This document shows, piece by piece, positions 16,400-25,314 of a stretch of 64,000 nucleotides of DNA (position 1 is its first letter; the number at the start of each line of letters is the position of its first letter). The notes below the pieces were generated by a model. It was given only the letters and a program-made list of their open reading frames with translations, searched no databases and had not been told where the DNA came from. A program made the translations under genes and the position numbers. Source of the DNA: Thermoleophilaceae bacterium (GTDB lineage Bacteria; Actinomycetota; Thermoleophilia; Solirubrobacterales; Thermoleophilaceae); NCBI GenBank assembly GCA_040901445.1, contig JBBDYQ010000022.1:186001-250000 (forward strand). Direction: 5' to 3'.

Positions 16400-16894
16400 G
16401 TGACCCTGCCTCGACCTGCCCTGTTCGCGATCCTCGGCGGAGTGCTGATCCTGGCCGTCTTCGCGCTCACCCGCGCGACCGGCCAGGCCGACGACTCCGG
16501 CGCTGCCGCGCCCGCCCCTGCGCCCGCCGCGGAGGCGCCCGCGCCGGCGGCCGAGGAGCCGGTCGCCGAGCCTGCGGCCGCGAAGCCCGCAGACAGTGGC
16601 GTTCCCGCCGGCCTCGAGCAGGCCATCGAGAAGGGCCAGGTTGCCGTGCTCGCCTTCACGCAGGAGGGCGGCGCCGAGGACGACGCCGTCCGCGCCGCGG
16701 TGGGCTCGCTCAGCGGCGTCCCCGTCTTCGTCGACGACGTCACCGAGATCGCCGAGTACCGCAAGGTCGTGGGCGAGCTCGACCTCGACCGCGCCCCCGC
16801 GGTGGTGATCGTGCGCGCCGATGGCAAGGCCGAGGTCATCGAGGGCTACGTCGACCCGGGCTCGCTCGCGCAGCAGGTAGAGGACGCGAGATGA
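16400..16894 (+). CDS. membrane-anchored thioredoxin-like protein of unknown function, linked to pilB
   Basis: A 164-residue protein from GTG 16400. It has one N-terminal helix (LFAILGGVLILAVFALTRAT), an Ala/Pro-rich linker (about residues 28-65) and an extracytoplasmic C-terminal domain of about 85 residues. The pattern VAVLAFTQ...VPVFVDDVTEIAEYRKV...DRAPAVVIVRADGKAEVIEGYVD resembles a thioredoxin fold, with a cis-Pro-like RAPAVVIV, but there is no CxxC pair, so it is not redox-active as a thioredoxin. It overlaps pilB by four bases (ATGA), suggesting a structural role in pilus assembly. I do not recognise a named family. Confidence 0.75.
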   Translation: MTLPRPALFAILGGVLILAVFALTRATGQADDSGAAAPAPAPAAEAPAPAAEEPVAEPAAAKPADSGVPAGLEQAIEKGQVAVLAFTQEGGAEDDAVRAAVGSLSGVPVFVDDVTEIAEYRKVVGELDLDRAPAVVIVRADGKAEVIEGYVDPGSLAQQVEDAR

Positions 16895-18633
16895 CCGAGC
16901 CCTCGGCGCTCCCCGCCGCCGAGGCCGGAGAGAACACTCCCTCGAACGGCATCACGCCCCCCCGCCGCCGAGGCGGCGCCAGCCGTCCGCTGGCCGACGT
17001 GCTCGTGGAGCTGGGCTTCGTGGGCGCCGACCGCATGGCGGCGGCCGTGGAGCAGGGCCGTGCCGAGGGCGCCACGCCAGAGCGGGTGCTGGCCGAGGCG
17101 GGAGACCTGACCCCCGACCGGCACGCCCGCGCCCTGGCCGAACGCTCGGGCCTGGAGCACGTGGACCTGGCGATCTACAAGCCGGACCTGTCGGCCACGA
17201 ACCTGATCAGCGCCCAGAAGGCGCGGCGTTACGAGGCCGTGCCGATCGGCTACGACGAGGCCGGCACGCTGCTCGTGGCGATGGCGAAGCCGGGCAACGT
17301 GCTCGCCCTGGACGACTTCAAGCTCATGACGGGCAGCGAGGTGCGCGCCGTGGTGGCGTCGGCCGACGACATCGCCGGTCTGATCGGGCGCATGAACCGC
17401 CTGGACGACGCGGTGGCCGAGGCCGTGGAGGACCAGGACGAGGAGGAGCTGGCCGTCGTCTCCGAGATCCGCGAGTCGGCCGATGACGCGCCCGTCATCA
17501 AGCTCGTGAACTCGATCATCGCCCAGGCCGCCCAGGACGGTGCCTCCGACATCCACTTCGAACCCGAGGGCCGCGACATGCGCGTGCGCTTCCGCGTGGA
17601 CGGCGTGCTCACCGAGACCACCACGATCCCGCGACGCATGATCCCCGGCGTGATCTCGCGGGTGAAGATCATGGGCGACCTCGACATCGCCGAGCGGCGC
17701 ATGCCCCAGGACGGACGCGTGGGGCTCACGGTGGAGGGCCGCGGGGTCGACATCCGGATCGTGACGATCCCGTCGGTGCACGGCGAGGGCATCGTCATGC
17801 GCCTGCTCGACAAGGACACGTCGCTGATCACGCTCGACGCGCTCGGCATGAAGGACGACAGCCGCGACCGCTTCGAGGCCGCCAGCCGCGCCTCCCATGG
17901 CTGCGTGCTGGTGACGGGGCCCACCGGGTCGGGCAAGTCCACCACGCTGTACGCGGCGCTCAACGCCATCAACTCGATCGACAAGCACATCATCACGATC
18001 GAGGACCCGGTGGAGTACCAGCTCCCGGGCCTCACCCAGATCCAGGTGAACAACCGCTCGGGGCTGACGTTCGCGCGCGGCCTGCGCTCCATGCTGCGCG
18101 CCGATCCCGACGTGATCATGGTCGGCGAGATCCGCGACGGCGAGACCGCGCGCATCGCGGTGGAGTCCGCGCTCACCGGCCACCTCGTCCTCTCCACCCT
18201 GCACACCAACGACGCGCCGTCCGCGATCACCCGCCTCACCGAGATGGGGATCGAGCCCTTCCTCACCGCCTCGGCCGTGGACTGCGTGGTGGCTCAGCGG
18301 CTGGCGCGAATGCTCTGCCGGCACTGCCGCAGGGAGACCACGCTCGGCCCGGACGCGCTCGCCGCCGCGGGCCATGAGGTGGAGGAGCCGATCCAGGCCT
18401 TCGAGCCGGCCGGCTGCGGCCGCTGCGGCGGCAGCGGGTATCGCGGCCGCACCGGCCTGTTCGAGGTGATGAGCGTGAGCGAGGAGATCCGCTCGCTCGC
18501 GATCAAGCGCGAGTCCGCCGACGTGATCCGCACCGTGGCCGTGGAGCAGGGAATGCGCCTGCTGCGCGACGACGGGCTGGAGAAGGTGCGCCACGGCGTG
18601 ACCTCCATCGCCGAGGTGGCGAGGGTCGCGTGA
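16891..18633 (+). CDS. pilB: type IV pilus assembly ATPase PilB (GspE/T2SSE family)
   Basis: Cytosolic hexameric ATPase that powers pilin polymerisation. Its 580 residues comprise an N-terminal GspE_N-like domain (PLADVLVELGFVGADRMAAA ... PIGYDEAGTLLVAMAKPGN), then the motor core. Walker A is GPTGSGKS (about 343-350), the Asp box is ITIEDPVEYQLPGLTQIQVN, Walker B is RADPDVIMVGEIRDGETA and the His box is TGHLVLSTLHTNDA. A zinc-binding tetracysteine lies between about residues 476 and 511 (CRHC and CGRC). ATG 16891 overlaps the previous stop. The set pilB-pilT-pilC is contiguous here, while the pilins start 13 kb downstream. Confidence 0.96.
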   Translation: MTEPSALPAAEAGENTPSNGITPPRRRGGASRPLADVLVELGFVGADRMAAAVEQGRAEGATPERVLAEAGDLTPDRHARALAERSGLEHVDLAIYKPDLSATNLISAQKARRYEAVPIGYDEAGTLLVAMAKPGNVLALDDFKLMTGSEVRAVVASADDIAGLIGRMNRLDDAVAEAVEDQDEEELAVVSEIRESADDAPVIKLVNSIIAQAAQDGASDIHFEPEGRDMRVRFRVDGVLTETTTIPRRMIPGVISRVKIMGDLDIAERRMPQDGRVGLTVEGRGVDIRIVTIPSVHGEGIVMRLLDKDTSLITLDALGMKDDSRDRFEAASRASHGCVLVTGPTGSGKSTTLYAALNAINSIDKHIITIEDPVEYQLPGLTQIQVNNRSGLTFARGLRSMLRADPDVIMVGEIRDGETARIAVESALTGHLVLSTLHTNDAPSAITRLTEMGIEPFLTASAVDCVVAQRLARMLCRHCRRETTLGPDALAAAGHEVEEPIQAFEPAGCGRCGGSGYRGRTGLFEVMSVSEEIRSLAIKRESADVIRTVAVEQGMRLLRDDGLEKVRHGVTSIAEVARVA

Positions 18634-18663
18634 GCTGCCGATAACGAGGAGGACCCAGACCGC

Positions 18664-19737
18664 ATGAGCATCGATTTCGCCGACATCCTGATCGAGGTCT
18701 CGCGCCTCGGAGCATCCGACCTGCACCTCACGGCCGGCTCGCCTCCGATGGTGCGCGAGCGTGGCCGCCTGCGCGCGCTGGACTACCCCAAGCTGTCCCC
18801 GCAGGACACGCGCGAGATCGTCTACTCGATCCTCACCAACGACCAGCGCAAGAAGCTCGAGACCGACTGGCAGATCGACCTCTCCTACGCGGTCCCCGGC
18901 CACGGCCGCTACCGCGTGAACGCCTACTACCAGCGCGCCTCGCTCGGCGCCGCGTTCCGGCTGATCCCCCAGGACATGCCGCACCTGGAGACCCTCGGGC
19001 TGCCGCAGGTCCTGATGGACTTCGCGCGCAAGCCGCGCGGCCTGGTGCTCGTGACCGGCCCGACCGGCTCGGGCAAGTCCACGACGCTCGCGGCCATGGT
19101 CGACCGCATCAACGACGAGCGCCACGAGCACATCCTCACCGTGGAGGACCCGATCGAGTTCCTCCACCGGCACAAGAACTGCATCGTCAACCAGCGCGAG
19201 CTGGGCTCGGACGCGCAGAGCTTCGCGATGGGCCTCAAGGCCGCGCTGCGCCAGGACCCCGACGTGATCCTGGTGGGCGAGATGCGCGACCTCGAGACCA
19301 TCTCCACCGCCCTGACCGCCGCGGAGACCGGGCACCTCGTCTTCGCCACCCTGCACACGCAGGACACCGCACAGACGGTGGACCGCATCGTGGACGTCTT
19401 CCCGCCCGAGCAGCAGCACCAGGTGCGCGTGCAGCTGTCGGTGGCCCTGCAGGGCATCGTCACCCAGCAGCTGCTGCAGACGACCGACGGCAAGGGCCGC
19501 GTGTGCGCCGCCGAGGTGCTGGTGCCCACGCCTGCCGTGCGCAACCTCATCCGCGAGGGCAAGACGCACCAGATCTACTCGGCGCTGCAGACCGGCGGCT
19601 CGCACGGCATGCAGACGATGGACGCCGCGCTGGCGGAGCTCGTGCGCGCCAACAAGATCACCCGCGAGCTGGCGGAGTCACGCTCCTCCACGCCGCAGGA
19701 GCTGCGCCGGCTGCTCGGAACGGTGAAGGTCGCGTAG
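18664..19737 (+). CDS. pilT: type IV pilus retraction ATPase PilT
   Basis: Retraction motor, 357 residues, normal for PilT. The N-terminal PAS-like part (VSRLGASDLHLTAGSPPMVR) and linker precede Walker A GPTGSGKS (about 132-139), the Asp box TVEDPIEFLHRHKNCIVNQRE, Walker B LRQDPDVILVGEMRDLETI and the His box TGHLVFATLHTQDTAQTVDRI. VRVQLSVALQGIVTQQLL is the PilT C-terminal helix. It lacks the tetracysteine of PilB. The Shine-Dalgarno sequence gaggagg precedes ATG 18664. Its presence implies retractile pili (twitching or DNA uptake). Confidence 0.95.
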   Translation: MSIDFADILIEVSRLGASDLHLTAGSPPMVRERGRLRALDYPKLSPQDTREIVYSILTNDQRKKLETDWQIDLSYAVPGHGRYRVNAYYQRASLGAAFRLIPQDMPHLETLGLPQVLMDFARKPRGLVLVTGPTGSGKSTTLAAMVDRINDERHEHILTVEDPIEFLHRHKNCIVNQRELGSDAQSFAMGLKAALRQDPDVILVGEMRDLETISTALTAAETGHLVFATLHTQDTAQTVDRIVDVFPPEQQHQVRVQLSVALQGIVTQQLLQTTDGKGRVCAAEVLVPTPAVRNLIREGKTHQIYSALQTGGSHGMQTMDAALAELVRANKITRELAESRSSTPQELRRLLGTVKVA

Positions 19738-19744
19738 GGCGCGT

Positions 19745-20959
19745 ATGGCCACGTTCGCCTTCAAGGCCCTGGACCTCCAGGGCATCGCCCAGCGCGGGGA
19801 GCTGGACGCCGAGGACAAGCAGGCCGTGGCGTCGCAGCTGCGCTCCAAGGGCCTCATCGTCATCGACATCGAGGAGTGCAAGCCCACCGACGTGGGCGAC
19901 ATCCTCGGCCGCTTCAAGCGGGTCAAGCCACAGGAGCTCACCGTGATGACGCGGCAGCTCTCCACGATGATCTCCTCGGGCATGTCGCTCCTGCGCTCGT
20001 TCTACGTGCTGGAGGACCAGGCCGAGAACGAGAAGCTGCGCGACGCGCTCGTCCAGATCCGCAAGGACGTGGAGGCGGGCATCTCGCTGTCCGGCGCGTT
20101 CGAGCGCCACCCCGACATCTTCAGCGACCTCTACGTGGCGATGGTGGCCGCCGGCGAGACGGGCGGCATCCTGGAGGACACCCTCAAGCGCGTGGCCGAC
20201 CAGCTCGAGAAGGACGACGCCCTGCGCCGCCAGGTGAAGTCGGCGATGACCTACCCGATCCTGATCGGCGGCTTCGCCGTGACCGTTCTCGTCGCGCTGG
20301 TGGCGTTCCTCGTCCCGGTGTTCGAGCAGGTGTTCGAGGACTTCGGCGGGGAGCTGCCGGCCATCACGAAGATGACCGTGACGTTGTCGCACTTCATCAC
20401 GGGCCGCTGGTACATCCTGATCGCCATCGTCATCGCCGTCATCTACGCCTTCAAGCGCTGGAAGGCGTCCGAGAAGGGCCGCGAGCAGTGGGACCGCTTC
20501 AAGCTGAAGCTGCCCTGGAAGATCGGCGGCATCGTGCAGAAGGTTGCGCTGGCGCGCTTCTCCCGCACCTACTCCGCCCTGATCGCCGCCGGCGTGCCGA
20601 TGCTCGAGGCCATCGAGATCACCGGCCGCACCTCGGGCAACAAGGTGATCGAGAAGGCCATGGATGCGGTGCGCGACTCGGTGAAGCGCGGCGGCTCGAT
20701 CGCCGCGCCCATGCGCTCGGAGCCGAGCGCCTTCCCGGTGATGGTCACCCAGATGATCGGCGTGGGCGAGGAGACCGGCGCGCTGGACGCCATGCTCACG
20801 AAGATCGCCGAGTTCTACGAGGACGAGGTCGCGGCCGCCCTGAAGATGCTGACGTCGATCCTCGAGCCGGTGATGATCATGTTCGTCGGCGCCATGGTCG
20901 GGTTCATCGTCATCTCGATGTACCTCCCGATGTTCCAGGTGTACGACCAGATCAAGTAA
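19745..20959 (+). CDS. pilC: type IV pilus inner-membrane platform protein PilC (GspF family)
   Basis: A 404-residue integral membrane platform that couples PilB/PilT to pilin extraction. Two T2SSF repeats are visible: the first with LTVMTRQLSTMISSGMSLLR and MVAAGETGGILEDTLKRVAD, the second with VALARFSRTYSALIAAGVPM and MIGVGEETGALDAMLTKIAE. The hydrophobic segments are YPILIGGFAVTVLVALVAFL, WYILIAIVIAVIYAFKRW and the C-terminal helix IMFVGAMVGFIVISMYLPMF. The first residues ATFAFKALDLQG are a typical PilC start. It is the last gene of this pilus sub-operon and ends 25 bases before a palindromic repeat. Confidence 0.95.
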   Translation: MATFAFKALDLQGIAQRGELDAEDKQAVASQLRSKGLIVIDIEECKPTDVGDILGRFKRVKPQELTVMTRQLSTMISSGMSLLRSFYVLEDQAENEKLRDALVQIRKDVEAGISLSGAFERHPDIFSDLYVAMVAAGETGGILEDTLKRVADQLEKDDALRRQVKSAMTYPILIGGFAVTVLVALVAFLVPVFEQVFEDFGGELPAITKMTVTLSHFITGRWYILIAIVIAVIYAFKRWKASEKGREQWDRFKLKLPWKIGGIVQKVALARFSRTYSALIAAGVPMLEAIEITGRTSGNKVIEKAMDAVRDSVKRGGSIAAPMRSEPSAFPVMVTQMIGVGEETGALDAMLTKIAEFYEDEVAAALKMLTSILEPVMIMFVGAMVGFIVISMYLPMFQVYDQIK

Positions 20960-21044: not shown

Positions 21045-21413
21045 TCAGTAGGTGAACGTCATCGCCTCGTCGCCGGCGAACTCCATCAGCGGCGAGGCGC
21101 CTTTGAGCTCGGCGTTCTGGACCAGTTCGTCCTCGTCCAGGTCACGCTCGTTGAAGCAGATCGGGCACACGTAGAAGCGCCCGCCCTTCTCGATGAACTG
21201 CTCGTGCACGCGCGCGACCGGCGGCTCCATGCCCTCGCGGATCGGGTCCGCGTAGCCGTCCATGGCGAGGCGCACGCCGTCCGACGTGAGCCACATCACC
21301 ACGTCCTTGCCCTGGTCCAGCGCGGCGCCGGCGGTGAGGTAGGCCACCACCACGCGGTCGGGGTCCTCCTCGCCGTGCGAGCAGCCGACGATCACGCGTC
21401 CGTTACCTGCCAT
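21045..21413 (-). CDS. DsrE/DsrF-like family protein
   Basis: A 122-residue DsrE-fold protein. The start VIVGCSHGEEDPDRVVVAYL, then ALDQGKDVVMWLTSDGVRLA and KGGRFYVCPICF, are the pattern of the DsrE-like proteins annotated as sulfur-reduction or predicted peroxiredoxin proteins. Conserved cysteines (in GCSHG and CPIC) could carry persulfide or another chalcogen. I chose ATG 21413 because it shares its A with the stop of the upstream methyltransferase (TGATG); GTG 21416 is possible. Tight coupling to the UGA-containing methyltransferase suggests the two act together on sulfur, selenium or arsenic compounds. Confidence 0.85.
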   Translation of the reverse strand: MAGNGRVIVGCSHGEEDPDRVVVAYLTAGAALDQGKDVVMWLTSDGVRLAMDGYADPIREGMEPPVARVHEQFIEKGGRFYVCPICFNERDLDEDELVQNAELKGASPLMEFAGDEAMTFTY

Positions 21414-22210
21414 CACTCATCCCCCCTTGGTTTCGTGGCGCGGATGGTCGACCCCATCGCGCCGAACTTGGCGGCCTTGCGCCGCGTGTCCTCGAACGCC
21501 GAGCGGGCGTAGGTGTCCACGAGCTCGCCCTGCTCGATCTCCGTGTAGCCCATCCCCACGAGGATGCGCGCGTGCTCTCCTTCCAGGAGAGCCCCGGCGA
21601 TTCACCCGGTCCAGAGGTCGATGCGCTTGCGTGCGTCCTCGGAGACCTCGGTGTGGACCACGACGTCGGCCACCTGCAGCCGGCCACCGGGGCGCAGCAC
21701 GCGGTCGATCTCGGCGAAGACCGCCTCCTTGTCGGGCACGAGGTCGATGACGCCGTTGGAAAGGACGACGTCCACGGACCCGTCCTCCAAGGGCAGCGAC
21801 TCGATCAGCGACTCGTGCACCTCGACGTTGGTCAGCCCCATCTCGCGCGCGCTCTCCCGCGCCCGGTCGAGCATGGCCGGGGTCATGTCGATCCCGGTCA
21901 CGTGCCCGCCCGGGCCGGCCATCTGAGCGGCCACCAGCAGGTCGGTGCCGGCGCCGCAGCCGAGGTCGAGCACCCGCCGGTCCGCCTCCACGCGCCCGAG
22001 GGAGAAGGGGTTGGCCACGCCCGCGAAGCTCTCCACGGTCGCGTCGGGCACGCGCGAGAGCTCGGGCTGGGGATAGTCCAGGTCCTCAGCCCACGCGCGG
22101 CCGGTGGGGAAGAGAAAGTCCTGGCCCTGTTCGCTGGAGACGTCGGTGTAGGTCTGCCGGATCTCGCGCCGGAGGACGTCGACGTCCACGGGGAGGTTCA
22201 CGGTGCTCAC
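21413..22210 (-). CDS. ArsM-like SAM-dependent methyltransferase with in-frame UGA (probable selenocysteine)
   Basis: A Rossmann methyltransferase of the arsenite-methyltransferase-like group. Residues 1-202 contain motif I VLDLGCGAGTD (80-90), GIDMTPAMLDRAR, EDGSVDVVLSNGVIDLVPDK and FAEIDRVLRPGGRLQVADVV, then reach RKRIDLWTG followed by UGA (21604-21602). In frame, 62 more codons follow (IAGALLEGEHARILVGMGYT, then EIEQGELVDTYARSAF, ending TKPRGDE) before a stop at 21413-21415. In this family the residue before IAGAL is a conserved, metalloid-binding cysteine, so UGA replaces exactly that residue. Read through, the protein is 265 residues long, the family length, and its stop overlaps the DsrE start; read as a stop, 188 bases of conserved coding sequence are unexplained. 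Sequencing error and pseudogene remain alternatives. Confidence 0.75.
21574..21592 (-). promoter_or_regulatory. bacterial SECIS-like hairpin just downstream of the UGA
   Basis: On the sense (minus) strand, GCTCTCC, loop TGGAA, GGAGAGC forms a perfect 7-bp stem. The stem starts nine bases after the UGA and the loop begins 16 bases after it, with G as the second loop base. Bacterial SECIS elements that recruit SelB are short stem-loops at this distance with a G among the first loop bases. Agreement in stem, loop and spacing supports selenocysteine decoding. Confidence 0.65.
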
Positions 22211-22270: not shown

Positions 22271-23218
22271 CTAAGCCGGCATGTCCACGACGCACGCGGG
22301 CACCGTGGCGTCGCAGCAGTCGGTGAGCGTGGTGATGAAGGCGCGCTCGGACGGCGTCAGGTGGCGGTCGTGTGCGCGCAGCAGCTGGATTGGCCGTGAG
22401 GGGGTGGCCCCGCCCGCGATGCGGAAGGAGCTCAGGCGCCCCTGCTCGAGCTCGTCCTCCACCACCAGCCGGGAGACGAAGCCCACGCCGAGCCCGGCCG
22501 CCACCGCCCGCTTGATCGCCTCGTTGGAGTCGAGCTCCCACGTCTTGGCCGGGCGCACCCCGGCGGCGCTCAGGTGCCTGTCCGCTGTCGCGCGCGTGGA
22601 GGAGCCGCGCTCACGGACCAGCAGCGTGTGCCCGGCGAGCTCCTCTGCGCGGACGTCCTCTGCGGCGAAGGTGCCCGGCGCCACGATGCCCACGAGCTCG
22701 TCGTCGAGGAACGGCTCGACGGCCACGGTCGGGACGGCCTGGATCTCGCCCGCGATCCCCAGCTGAACCTCGCGCGTGGCGACCTGGCGCATGACCTCGG
22801 CGCTGGGGCCGATCGACATCGTCACGTCCACGCCCGGGTGGCGCTCGGCGAAGCACTTCAGCACCGAGGGGAGCACGTAGGTGCCCGGCGTGGTGGACGC
22901 CGCGAGCGTGAGCACGCCCGTTTCGCCCCCGCGCAGCGCCCGCAGCTCGTCCTCCATCGCCGCCAGTGAGCCGAGCATCTGCGAGGCGTGGTCGGCCACG
23001 ACGCGGCCGGCGTCGGTGAGGGTCGAGCCGCGGCCTTCGCGCCGCAGGAGCGGCTCACCGACCGCGCCCTCGAGGGTCTTGAGGTGCTTCGTGGCCGACG
23101 GCTGCCCGATGCGGCACGCGTCGGCCGCCGCGGAGATCGAGCCGCGACGCTCCACCTCCACGAGCAGCCGCAGGCGCAGCGGGTCCAGCGCCTGGGCCAT
23201 GCCGTTCTGGAAGTTCAC
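22271..23218 (-). CDS. LysR-family transcriptional regulator with Cys-rich C terminus
   Basis: A 315-residue regulator (GTG 23218; ATG 23200, MAQALDPLRL, is a likely alternative). The winged-helix HTH is LRLLVEVERRGSISAAADAC, then QPSATKHLKTLEGAVGEPLL. The effector domain follows with GVLTLAASTTPGTYVLPSVL and WELDSNEAIKRAVAAGLGVG, resembling the CysB/CysL-type subgroup. The tail, TLTDCCDATVPACVVDMPA, contains CC-x6-C, unusual for LysR proteins; it could bind a thiophilic metal, metalloid or persulfide (inference). It is divergent from the metallo-hydrolase/MFS pair and probably in one operon with the methyltransferase and DsrE genes, so it likely controls both sides. Confidence 0.88.
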   Translation of the reverse strand: MNFQNGMAQALDPLRLRLLVEVERRGSISAAADACRIGQPSATKHLKTLEGAVGEPLLRREGRGSTLTDAGRVVADHASQMLGSLAAMEDELRALRGGETGVLTLAASTTPGTYVLPSVLKCFAERHPGVDVTMSIGPSAEVMRQVATREVQLGIAGEIQAVPTVAVEPFLDDELVGIVAPGTFAAEDVRAEELAGHTLLVRERGSSTRATADRHLSAAGVRPAKTWELDSNEAIKRAVAAGLGVGFVSRLVVEDELEQGRLSSFRIAGGATPSRPIQLLRAHDRHLTPSERAFITTLTDCCDATVPACVVDMPA

Positions 23219-23244: not shown

Positions 23245-23272
23245 GGAGAGCGCAACCCTACCGTCCACTCCC

Positions 23273-24034
23273 ATGTACTTCCGCCAGCTCCTCAACGACG
23301 ACACGGCGTGCGCCTCCTACCTCCTCGGCTGCAAGTCGCGTTCGAGCTTCGCGGTCGTGGACCCGCACATCGCCCTCGTCGACGACTACCTGCGCCTCGC
23401 CGAGGGGCAGGGAGCGTCGATCACCGCCGTCCTCGAGACCCACGTCCAGGCCGATCACGTGTCCGGCCTACCCGACCTCGTGGCCCGCACGGGGGCCACG
23501 GCCTACCTGCCCGAGGGAGCCGACGTGGCCTTCGACCACGTGGCGCTCGCGCACGGTGGAGAGGTCGAGCTCGGCAACGTCTCGGTGGGCGCCCTGGCCA
23601 CGCCCGGCCATGCCGCGGCGCACAACGCGTACACCGTCACCGACCACACCCGGGCCGAGGAGCCGTGGCTCGTGCTCACGGGTGACGCGCTGCTGGTGGG
23701 CGACGCCGGGCGCCCCGACCTCCACGCGTACGGCGAGCTGTCTCCCGAGGAGATGGCACGCCGGCTGCACCGCTCCATCCGCGATCGCATCCTCTCGCTG
23801 CCCGATCACGTGGCTCTCTACCCCGCGCACTACTCCGGCTCGGTGTGCGGCCGCGGGCTCTCCGCGGTGCCCGCGTCCACGGTCGGCTTCGAGCGCGCGC
23901 ACAACCCGGCGCTGCGCTTCGACGGCGAGGACGAGTTCGCGGCAGCGCTGGTGCGGGACATGCCGCCCGCGCCCGGCGGGCAGGCGGAGATCGTCGCGGC
24001 CAATCGCGCCGGGCGACCGCGTTCTCCCGCCTGA
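23273..24034 (+). CDS. MBL-fold metallo-hydrolase, persulfide dioxygenase (ETHE1)-like, with H-x-Q-x-D-H motif
   Basis: A 253-residue metallo-beta-lactamase-fold protein. The order of motifs follows glyoxalase II/ETHE1 persulfide dioxygenases: AVLETHVQADHVSGLPDLVA, PGHAAAHNAYTV, LVLTGDALLVGDAGRPDL and ALYPAHYSGSVCG. ETHE1-type enzymes oxidise glutathione or coenzyme-A-type persulfide to sulfite with a mononuclear iron (His, His, Asp). Here the canonical HxHxDH is HVQADH: Gln replaces the second His, which could change metal binding or activity. The neighbouring DsrE protein and UGA methyltransferase fit a sulfur or selenium substrate. No rhodanese domain is fused. Confidence 0.8.
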   Translation: MYFRQLLNDDTACASYLLGCKSRSSFAVVDPHIALVDDYLRLAEGQGASITAVLETHVQADHVSGLPDLVARTGATAYLPEGADVAFDHVALAHGGEVELGNVSVGALATPGHAAAHNAYTVTDHTRAEEPWLVLTGDALLVGDAGRPDLHAYGELSPEEMARRLHRSIRDRILSLPDHVALYPAHYSGSVCGRGLSAVPASTVGFERAHNPALRFDGEDEFAAALVRDMPPAPGGQAEIVAANRAGRPRSPA

Positions 24035-25314
24035 TGCCCGCCCGGCAGGTCGAGCTCGGCCTGCGGGAGAACCTGCCGCAGTTCTCGCTCCTCGTCGGAC
24101 TCAACGCCTTCGTCGGCGCGATGGTGGGCCTGGAGCGCTCCACGTTGCCGCTTCTGGGGGAGGAGGACTTCGGCCTGGTCTCCAAGGCGGCCGTGCTCTC
24201 GTTCATCGTCGCCTTCGGCGCCGCGAAGGCGCTCACGAACCTCGGCGCGGGGGCGCTGGCGCAGCGGCTCGGGCGGCGGCGCCTGCTGATCGCGGGCTGG
24301 GCGCTGGCGCTTCCGGTGCCGCTGCTGGTGGGCATCGCGCCGTCGTGGGGGTGGATCGTGGCAGCCAACGTGCTGCTCGGGGTCAACCAGGGCCTCGCGT
24401 GGTCCATGACCGTGGTGATGAAGATCGACCTGGTCGGACCGCGGCGACGCGGGTTCGCGCTCGGGCTGAACGAAGCCGCGGGCTACGGCGGCGTGGCGCT
24501 CGCCGCCGCGGCCACGGGTCTGCTCGCGGCGGAGTTCGCGGCGCGCGACGTGCTCGTGGTCGCCGGCGCGGGGATCGCGGTCATCGCGCTACTGCTCTCG
24601 GTGCTGTTCGTTCGCGACACCGCCGGGCACGTCGCCCTCGAGCAGGCGCGCCACCACGCCGCCGATGACCGCCCCGAGCCCCGCCTCCGGGAGGCATTCC
24701 GCGACACGAGCTGGCGGCTGCCGGCTCTGAGGTCGTGCTCGCAGGCCGGGCTGGTGAACAACCTCAACGACGCTCTCGCCTGGGGGCTCGTGCCGCTGTT
24801 CCTCGCCGCCGAGGGGGCGAGCGTGGGACAGATCGGGCTGGTGGCCGCGGTCTACCCGGCGGTGTGGGGGCTCGGGCAGGTCTGGGCCGGGCACTGGTCG
24901 GACCGCGTGGGGCGCAAGCCGCTGATCGTGGCCGGCATGTTCACGCAGGCCGCGGCGCTCGCCGTGCTCGCCGTCTCGGGTGGGGACGTGGCGGTGGCCG
25001 CGGTCTCCGCCATCCTGCTCGGGGTCGGCACCGCGCTCGTGTACCCGACCCTCATCGCGGCGATCTCCGACGCGGTCGCGCCGGTCGCGCGGGCGCCCGT
25101 GGTCGGCGTCTACCGCTTCTGGCGCGATTCGGGCTATGTGGCGGGCGGCCTGGTGGCCGGGGTGGTGGCCGATGCGCTCGGGTTCGGCGGGGCGATCGCG
25201 GTGGTCGCCGGGCTCACCGCGGCCTCGGGAGTGTGGGTCGCGCTGGACCTCCCGGGTAGGCTGCGCCCGCACCCCGACCGGAGGCGGACGAGATGGCGAA
25301 GGACGGTAGCCTGA
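24034..25314 (+). CDS. MFS transporter
   Basis: A 426-residue, 12-helix major facilitator. ATG 24034 overlaps the metallo-hydrolase stop by one base (TGATG), so the two are co-translated. Features include LGAGALAQRLGRRRLLIAGW (motif A variant), GVNQGLAWSMTVVMKIDLVG with PRRRGFALGLNEAAGYGGVA, and in the second half GHWSDRVGRKPLIVAGM and LGVGTALVYPTLIAAISDAV. The sequence resembles sugar/drug antiporters; the substrate is unknown. Context suggests export or uptake of a sulfur-, selenium- or arsenic-containing compound handled by the cluster. The 3' end overlaps the start of the next gene by 22 bases. Confidence 0.85.
   Translation: MPARQVELGLRENLPQFSLLVGLNAFVGAMVGLERSTLPLLGEEDFGLVSKAAVLSFIVAFGAAKALTNLGAGALAQRLGRRRLLIAGWALALPVPLLVGIAPSWGWIVAANVLLGVNQGLAWSMTVVMKIDLVGPRRRGFALGLNEAAGYGGVALAAAATGLLAAEFAARDVLVVAGAGIAVIALLLSVLFVRDTAGHVALEQARHHAADDRPEPRLREAFRDTSWRLPALRSCSQAGLVNNLNDALAWGLVPLFLAAEGASVGQIGLVAAVYPAVWGLGQVWAGHWSDRVGRKPLIVAGMFTQAAALAVLAVSGGDVAVAAVSAILLGVGTALVYPTLIAAISDAVAPVARAPVVGVYRFWRDSGYVAGGLVAGVVADALGFGGAIAVVAGLTAASGVWVALDLPGRLRPHPDRRRTRWRRTVA

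What the first reader, a model, noticed from the sequence alone, without database searches (positions are those of the whole stretch)
21413..22210. Likely new selenoprotein: ArsM-like methyltransferase with UGA at the metalloid-binding cysteine
Seen: the minus-strand ORF ends at UGA 21604-21602 after RKRIDLWTG, yet the same frame continues for 62 codons without a stop, giving IAGALLEGEH and onward. It ends in a TGATG overlap with the next gene. Known: ArsM-like proteins have a conserved Cys at this very position (W-x-G-C-I/V-x-GAL), which binds arsenite. Inference: UGA is read as selenocysteine. If so, this would be a Sec-containing metalloid or selenium methyltransferase, little described for this family.
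Basis: partly seen in the sequence, partly recalled or inferred. Interest (0 to 1): 0.92.

Follow-up and report, generated by a model that had tools for sequence, protein, structure and literature searches.

The report
Selenium-containing ArsM-like methyltransferase beside sulfur genes
This bacterial gene has an internal UGA that is read as selenocysteine rather than stop, making a methyltransferase related to arsenic-methylating enzymes; that kind of selenoprotein is already known, but this branch has lost the other arsenic-holding cysteines and often sits beside sulfur-handling genes, so its substrate is probably not plain arsenite.

Summary
A minus-strand methyltransferase frame (22210-21413) runs through UGA at 21604-21602 and ends in a TGATG overlap with a DsrE-type gene. 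The genome holds selA, selB, selD, a tRNA-Sec (anticodon UCA) and a second selenoprotein, a Sec formate dehydrogenase. Every close orthologue examined has UGA at the same codon: 10 of 10 copies in the order and 40 of 40 strong matches in the class carry an in-frame TGA. More distant relatives have Cys there. A SECIS-type hairpin starts 9 nt after the UGA and covaries across relatives. 'Metalloid-binding' is also only partly right. The position matches CmArsM Cys224 / human AS3MT Cys206, but the two other arsenite ligands are replaced (Val65, Gly153). The clade is separate from canonical ArsM and is often neighboured by persulfide-dioxygenase-like, DsrE, MFS and LysR or ArsR-rhodanese genes. 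My best guess is a Sec-dependent methyltransferase for a soft chalcogen or metalloid substrate. The Sec reading is near certain; the substrate is unproven.

The parts
21413..22210 (-). Selenoprotein methyltransferase gene (265 aa, GTG start, final stop TGA 21415-21413)
21602..21604 (-). In-frame UGA read as selenocysteine (Sec203, motif WTG-U-IAGAL, UxxG type)
   Evidence: UGA in every close orthologue, Cys in more distant relatives
21574..21592 (-). bSECIS hairpin GCUCUCC-UGGAA-GGAGAGC, 9 nt after the UGA codon; apical loop starts 16 nt after it and carries GG
   Evidence: fits the bSECIS model in PMC13188914
21045..21413 (-). DsrE/DsrF-like protein with a CPIC (CxxC) motif, overlapping the methyltransferase stop (TGATG)
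   Evidence: PF02635, 42 bits; adjacent in 20 of 34 close Sec loci
22271..23218 (-). LysR-family regulator 60 bp upstream on the same strand, facing away from the MBL gene
   Evidence: nearest NCBIfam model is the selenium-metabolism LysR NF040786 (201.6 bits, below its cut-off of 250); present in some relatives
23252..24034 (+). Metallo-beta-lactamase protein resembling persulfide dioxygenases (start approximate)
   Evidence: 3tp9 2e-47, ETHE1 4chl 3e-14; 60-72% identical next to relatives
23908..25314 (+). MFS transporter directly after the MBL gene (start approximate)
   Evidence: PF07690; conserved neighbour at 60-75% identity

Best explanation
The gene makes a 265-residue SAM-dependent methyltransferase with the ArsM/AS3MT fold. 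SelB and tRNA-Sec insert selenocysteine at codon 203, directed by a SECIS hairpin just downstream (computationally well supported, no protein data). Sec203 occupies the position of the substrate-binding Cys of arsenite methyltransferases (alignment). The other arsenite ligands of ArsM are missing, so the single selenolate is probably the only chalcogen ligand in the active site (inference). The enzyme most likely uses it to hold or activate a soft substrate next to SAM: a selenide, persulfide or tellurium species, or an arsenical carried on a thiol. The substrate may be passed on by the DsrE partner and the product exported by the MFS protein, within a sulfur/selenium-stress gene cluster (inference).
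For: Sec: selA 474 bits and selB 307 bits adjacent on one contig, selD 380 bits; tRNA-Sec with anticodon tca; a second selenoprotein, formate dehydrogenase ARIUHSSTV. UGA conserved: 10/10 copies in 232 genomes of the order, 40/40 matches above 340 bits in the class carry an in-frame TGA. Sec/Cys pairing with relatives L104-L107 and L027-L030. SECIS: all 7 pairs form in 14 sequences, two pairs change on both sides, 0/500 shuffles reach the covariation score; a similar hairpin is seen in nearly all Sec forms and not at this place in Cys forms. Fold and position: best solved relatives are CrArsM, CmArsM and human AS3MT by sequence and by fold. Missing ligands: VAN/SNG instead of GCG/SNC in the close clade and Gly at 153 in every Sec form read, while canonical ArsM of the same order keeps all three Cys. 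Cluster: MBL, MFS, LysR or ArsR-rhodanese, DsrE; DsrE next to 20/34 close Sec loci and 0/21 canonical ArsM loci.
Against: No protein, transcript or enzyme data. Four of 32 near-complete genomes with a Sec form show no selA (G665, G726, G300, G426) and nothing beyond EF-Tu-level selB scores; they are fragmented assemblies. In L060, L061 and L063 the hairpin is in a shifted register, and in L094, L099 and L102 the predicted fold is weak or different. DsrE is absent within about 1.5 kb of 14 of 34 close loci. The substrate is inferred from missing residues and neighbours only.
Confidence: 0.6

Rival explanations
1. It is a working arsenite methyltransferase in which Sec replaces one Cys and small thiols or the DsrE CxxC pair supply the other ligands, serving arsenic detoxification.
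For: Closest solved structures are arsenite methyltransferases; the best NCBIfam models are named arsenite methyltransferase; Sec sits at the essential Cys; no canonical ArsM-level match shows up in this genome.
Against: C174-equivalent is Gly and C72-equivalent is not Cys in all Sec forms read; C156S or C206S of human AS3MT and C174A of CmArsM are inactive (PMC3877260); the neighbours are sulfur-type, with no arsenic efflux or reductase gene recognised beside it; several relatives (G002, G019, G043) also carry another, more ArsM-like match at 142-155 bits; it scores 203 bits against the arsM model cut-off of 263.
Confidence: 0.25
2. UGA is a true stop: a 202-residue truncated enzyme is made and the downstream frame is a relic or a separate short reading frame.
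For: UGA is the normal stop codon, and the catalytic domain (residues 77-180) lies before it.
Against: The downstream frame is conserved with many synonymous differences across dozens of genomes; relatives read through with Cys; the SECIS hairpin covaries; full Sec machinery is present.
Confidence: 0.02
3. The TGA is a sequencing or assembly error for TGC or TGT.
For: A single base would explain it in one genome.
Against: The same TGA is found in dozens of independent assemblies, with SECIS covariation.
Confidence: 0.005
4. The Sec residue has a redox role (for example, a persulfide or disulfide relay with the DsrE protein) and methyl transfer is lost or secondary.
For: Many known selenoproteins are redox enzymes; DsrE, rhodanese and persulfide-dioxygenase-type genes lie nearby; some members have no Cys at all besides the Sec.
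Against: The SAM-binding motif LDLGxGxxTD is conserved in the whole close clade.
Confidence: 0.12

Closest known systems
Arsenite methyltransferase selenoprotein (NF008823 / PRK11873, UxxG; Fomenko 2007, as listed in PMC13188914; GOS counts in PMC2398784)
   Same: ArsM-type methyltransferase with Sec at the conserved Cys; same UxxG motif.
   Different: This protein is below the PRK11873 cut-off (203 versus 263 bits). I could not read the published sequences, so whether they also lack the other Cys ligands is unknown.
NCBIfam fused selenoproteins NF041536 (ArsM/DUF2284), NF041537 (ArsM/AhpD), NF047649 (methyltransferase/UXPK-star)
   Same: Their methyltransferase domains align one-to-one with residues 9-229 here and are the best-scoring models (214.9, 214.4, 206.3 bits).
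   Different: Those carry a second, fused C-terminal domain and more than one Sec; this protein stands alone with one Sec and is far below their cut-offs (575, 510, 460).
Canonical ArsM / AS3MT (CmArsM 4fs8, CrArsM 5evj, human AS3MT 8xt7)
   Same: Fold, SAM site, and position of Sec203 = CmArsM C224 / human C206.
   Different: Lacks the C72 and C174 ligands (Val65, Gly153); separate clade with full support.
Other DsrE- and persulfide-dioxygenase-containing sulfur-stress clusters
   Same: DsrE, MBL persulfide-dioxygenase-like and ArsR-rhodanese genes in the neighbourhood.
   Different: A selenoprotein methyltransferase is part of the cluster here.

Membership tests
Selenoproteins (Sec recoding) | selA, selB, selD and tRNA-Sec in the genome | tested here: met
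Selenoproteins (Sec recoding) | UGA aligned with Cys or UGA in homologues, frame conserved after it | tested here: met
Selenoproteins (Sec recoding) | bSECIS: 3-9 nt loop, 4-16 bp stem, G in the first two loop positions, 16-37 nt from UGA, energy at most -7.5 kcal/mol | tested here: met
   Loop UGGAA, 7-bp stem, loop 16 nt after UGA, -20.4 kcal/mol for the 45-nt stretch
Selenoproteins (Sec recoding) | Selenium in the purified protein, or a peptide across the UGA | not testable with these tools
   Needs the bench
Arsenite methyltransferase (ArsM/AS3MT) | Class I SAM methyltransferase with ArsM fold | tested here: met
Arsenite methyltransferase (ArsM/AS3MT) | Three As(III) ligands (CmArsM C72, C174, C224), of which the C174 and C224 equivalents are essential | tested here: not met
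   Val65, Gly153, Sec203; only one of three kept (PMC3877260)
Arsenite methyltransferase (ArsM/AS3MT) | Curated score cut-off of NF008823 (263 bits) | tested here: not met
   203.4 bits; a canonical ArsM from the same order scores 290
Arsenite methyltransferase (ArsM/AS3MT) | Methylates arsenite | not testable with these tools
   Enzyme assay needed
NCBIfam fused ArsM selenoproteins (NF041536, NF041537, NF047649) | Fused C-terminal DUF2284, AhpD or UXPK-star domain and curated cut-off | tested here: not met
   The protein ends at residue 265 without such a domain; scores are far below the cut-offs

The most novel reading that the evidence does not exclude
A widespread actinobacterial clade of stand-alone Sec methyltransferases that have given up arsenite chemistry and use one selenolate to methylate a chalcogen species (persulfide, selenide or tellurium), working with DsrE and a persulfide dioxygenase in a sulfur/selenium-stress pathway not described in the sources I could read.
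Probability: 0.35. Interest if true: 0.75.

Novelty: new member of a known kind. Interest (0 to 1): 0.5.

Why it matters
With no curated selenoprotein model reaching its cut-off, automatic annotation would probably call this gene a truncated 202-residue methyltransferase, so a whole clade is likely misannotated in many soil and groundwater Actinomycetota genomes. Sec is kept at this residue almost without exception while the other arsenic ligands are lost. That makes it a clean system for asking what selenium does for a methyltransferase, and whether ArsM-like selenoproteins act on something other than arsenite.

Tried and rejected
Sequencing error: rejected, because the same TGA occurs in dozens of assemblies. 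True stop: rejected on downstream conservation, Cys relatives and SECIS. Filing as ArsM: not done, because two of three arsenite ligands and the curated cut-off are not met. RNAalifold on the first 10 sequences gave a poor consensus because three of them (L060, L061, L063) use a shifted helix; on 14 sequences without those the 7-bp helix is fully paired. One DNA alignment (A4) was misregistered by my coordinates for the window and was replaced by A5. Promoter and terminator scan found nothing. The key paper on neighbourhoods of fused ArsM selenoproteins (Haft and Tolstoy 2025) is not held, and Fomenko 2007 is known here only as a cited reference, so I could not compare sequences. Plasmid homologues (Chelatococcus, Haloarcula) have Cys, also with SNG; the haloarchaeal ones sit beside OsmC genes. 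Pfam calls on guessed neighbour frames failed on wrong frames, so a possible DUF4395-like neighbour is not claimed.

Full report
Observation. The minus-strand frame 22210-21413 contains TGA at 21604-21602 and then stays open for 62 sense codons to a second TGA at 21415-21413, whose last base starts the ATG of the next gene. The read-through product is 265 residues long and U203 lies in LWTGUIAGALLEGEH.

Sec machinery. The window's genome (3.54 Mb, 25 contigs, listed as 100% complete) has selA (473.9 bits) next to a selB match over its cut-off (306.6 bits), selD (379.8 bits) and one tRNA-Sec with anticodon tca. A formate dehydrogenase-like gene on another contig has UGA in ARIUHSSTV, so Sec is evidently used elsewhere in this genome.

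Conservation of the UGA. In 232 genomes of the order, 8 genomes carry 10 close copies (71-79% identity to the window protein where it is not the window itself); each has one in-frame TGA, and it lies at this codon. Seven of those 8 have selA, against 76 of 232 overall (Fisher p 0.002). A scan of GTDB genome contigs added Solirubrobacterales, Thermoleophilia and Acidimicrobiia bins, including a set at 63-65% identity, again all UGA in the ones read. In 399 genomes of the class, all 40 matches above 340 bits have an in-frame TGA. In 396 genomes of the phylum, a second tier at 254-291 bits also has TGA, and lower-scoring relatives have Cys. Among near-complete genomes with a Sec form I count 28 of 32 with selA. 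The four exceptions show no selB over EF-Tu level either, which is the main loose end; they are fragmented assemblies.

SECIS. A hairpin GCUCUCC-UGGAA-GGAGAGC begins 9 nt after the UGA, with its loop 16 nt after it, and fits the published bacterial model. In 14 relatives all 98 pair cells are standard pairs, two pairs change on both sides, and none of 500 shuffles reaches the covariation score. More distant Sec forms keep the hairpin with other pairs and a CGUGC or CGUGU loop; Cys forms lack it at this place. Three loci (L060, L061, L063) use a shifted register and three (L094, L099, L102) fold weakly or differently.

Identity of the protein. Pfam gives class I methyltransferase domains. The best NCBIfam models are the methyltransferase parts of fused ArsM selenoproteins, then PRK11873, all below cut-off. 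The best solved relatives by sequence and fold are CrArsM, CmArsM and human AS3MT (AlphaFold model pLDDT 81). U203 aligns with the Cys of CLAGAL/CLGGAL (CmArsM C224, human C206). The other arsenite ligands, CmArsM C72 and C174 (human C61 and C156), are Val65 and Gly153. Every Sec form read has Gly at 153 and no Cys at 65, whereas canonical ArsM from the same order has SLGCG...SNC...WTGC. Some members (for example L072, L073, L120) have no Cys at all besides the Sec. A tree puts 57 Sec and 8 Cys rows together (support 100) apart from 21 canonical ArsM rows, with five Cys rows branching at the base of the clade and three Cys rows nested inside it, the latter suggesting a reversion (quick tree, long branches flagged).

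Neighbourhood. Downstream is a DsrE-like gene with CPIC; upstream a LysR regulator; divergently an MBL protein like persulfide dioxygenases (3tp9, ETHE1) and an MFS transporter. The MBL and MFS genes recur at 60-75% identity beside relatives. In several relatives an ArsR-rhodanese fusion gene takes the regulator's place. DsrE adjoins 20 of 34 close Sec loci and none of 21 canonical ArsM loci. No arsenic efflux or reductase gene was recognised in the window cluster, though I did not search for these systematically.

What is known. PMC13188914 lists arsenite methyltransferase (UxxG) among experimentally verified selenoprotein families (citing Fomenko 2007) and lists fused ArsM selenoproteins from Haft and Tolstoy 2025; PMC2398784 counted eight Sec forms in ocean data. 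PMC3877260 reports that human C156S and C206S and CmArsM C174A and C224A do not methylate arsenite. So the Sec discovery is not new; what I did not find described is the stand-alone actinobacterial clade with lost arsenite ligands beside sulfur genes.

Mechanism. Shown by computation: Sec insertion signals, conservation, fold, loss of ligands, neighbourhood. Inferred: Sec203 as the sole soft ligand near SAM, a chalcogen-type or thiol-bound metalloid substrate, hand-over by DsrE, export by MFS. Not shown: any activity.

Noticed in passing
L053:6672-7334, L055:3849-4511 and others: An ArsR-type HTH fused to a rhodanese domain sits between the persulfide-dioxygenase-like gene and the methyltransferase in many relatives, including Cys forms L027 and L029; in the window a LysR gene takes that slot.
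   Followed up: partly
G000:C10:4164-4910 (L134): A Sec-containing formate dehydrogenase-like gene (ARIUHSSTV) elsewhere in the same genome.
   Followed up: partly
L104, L105, L106: Cys forms nested inside the Sec clade, in genomes that still have selA: a possible Sec-to-Cys reversion.
   Followed up: partly
L060, L061, L063: The SECIS hairpin uses a shifted register with a bulged U and a different loop while the protein sequence stays nearly the same.
   Followed up: partly
L137, L138 (haloarchaeal plasmids): Homologues of the clade sit directly after an OsmC-family gene and a DUF1059 gene; the Haloarcula one reads Cys with SNG, the Haladaptatus one was not translated.
   Followed up: no
window 16846-20959: Type IV pilus assembly genes (PilB, PilT and PilC-like) lie next to the cluster on the plus strand, identified by eye from their translations.
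   Followed up: no
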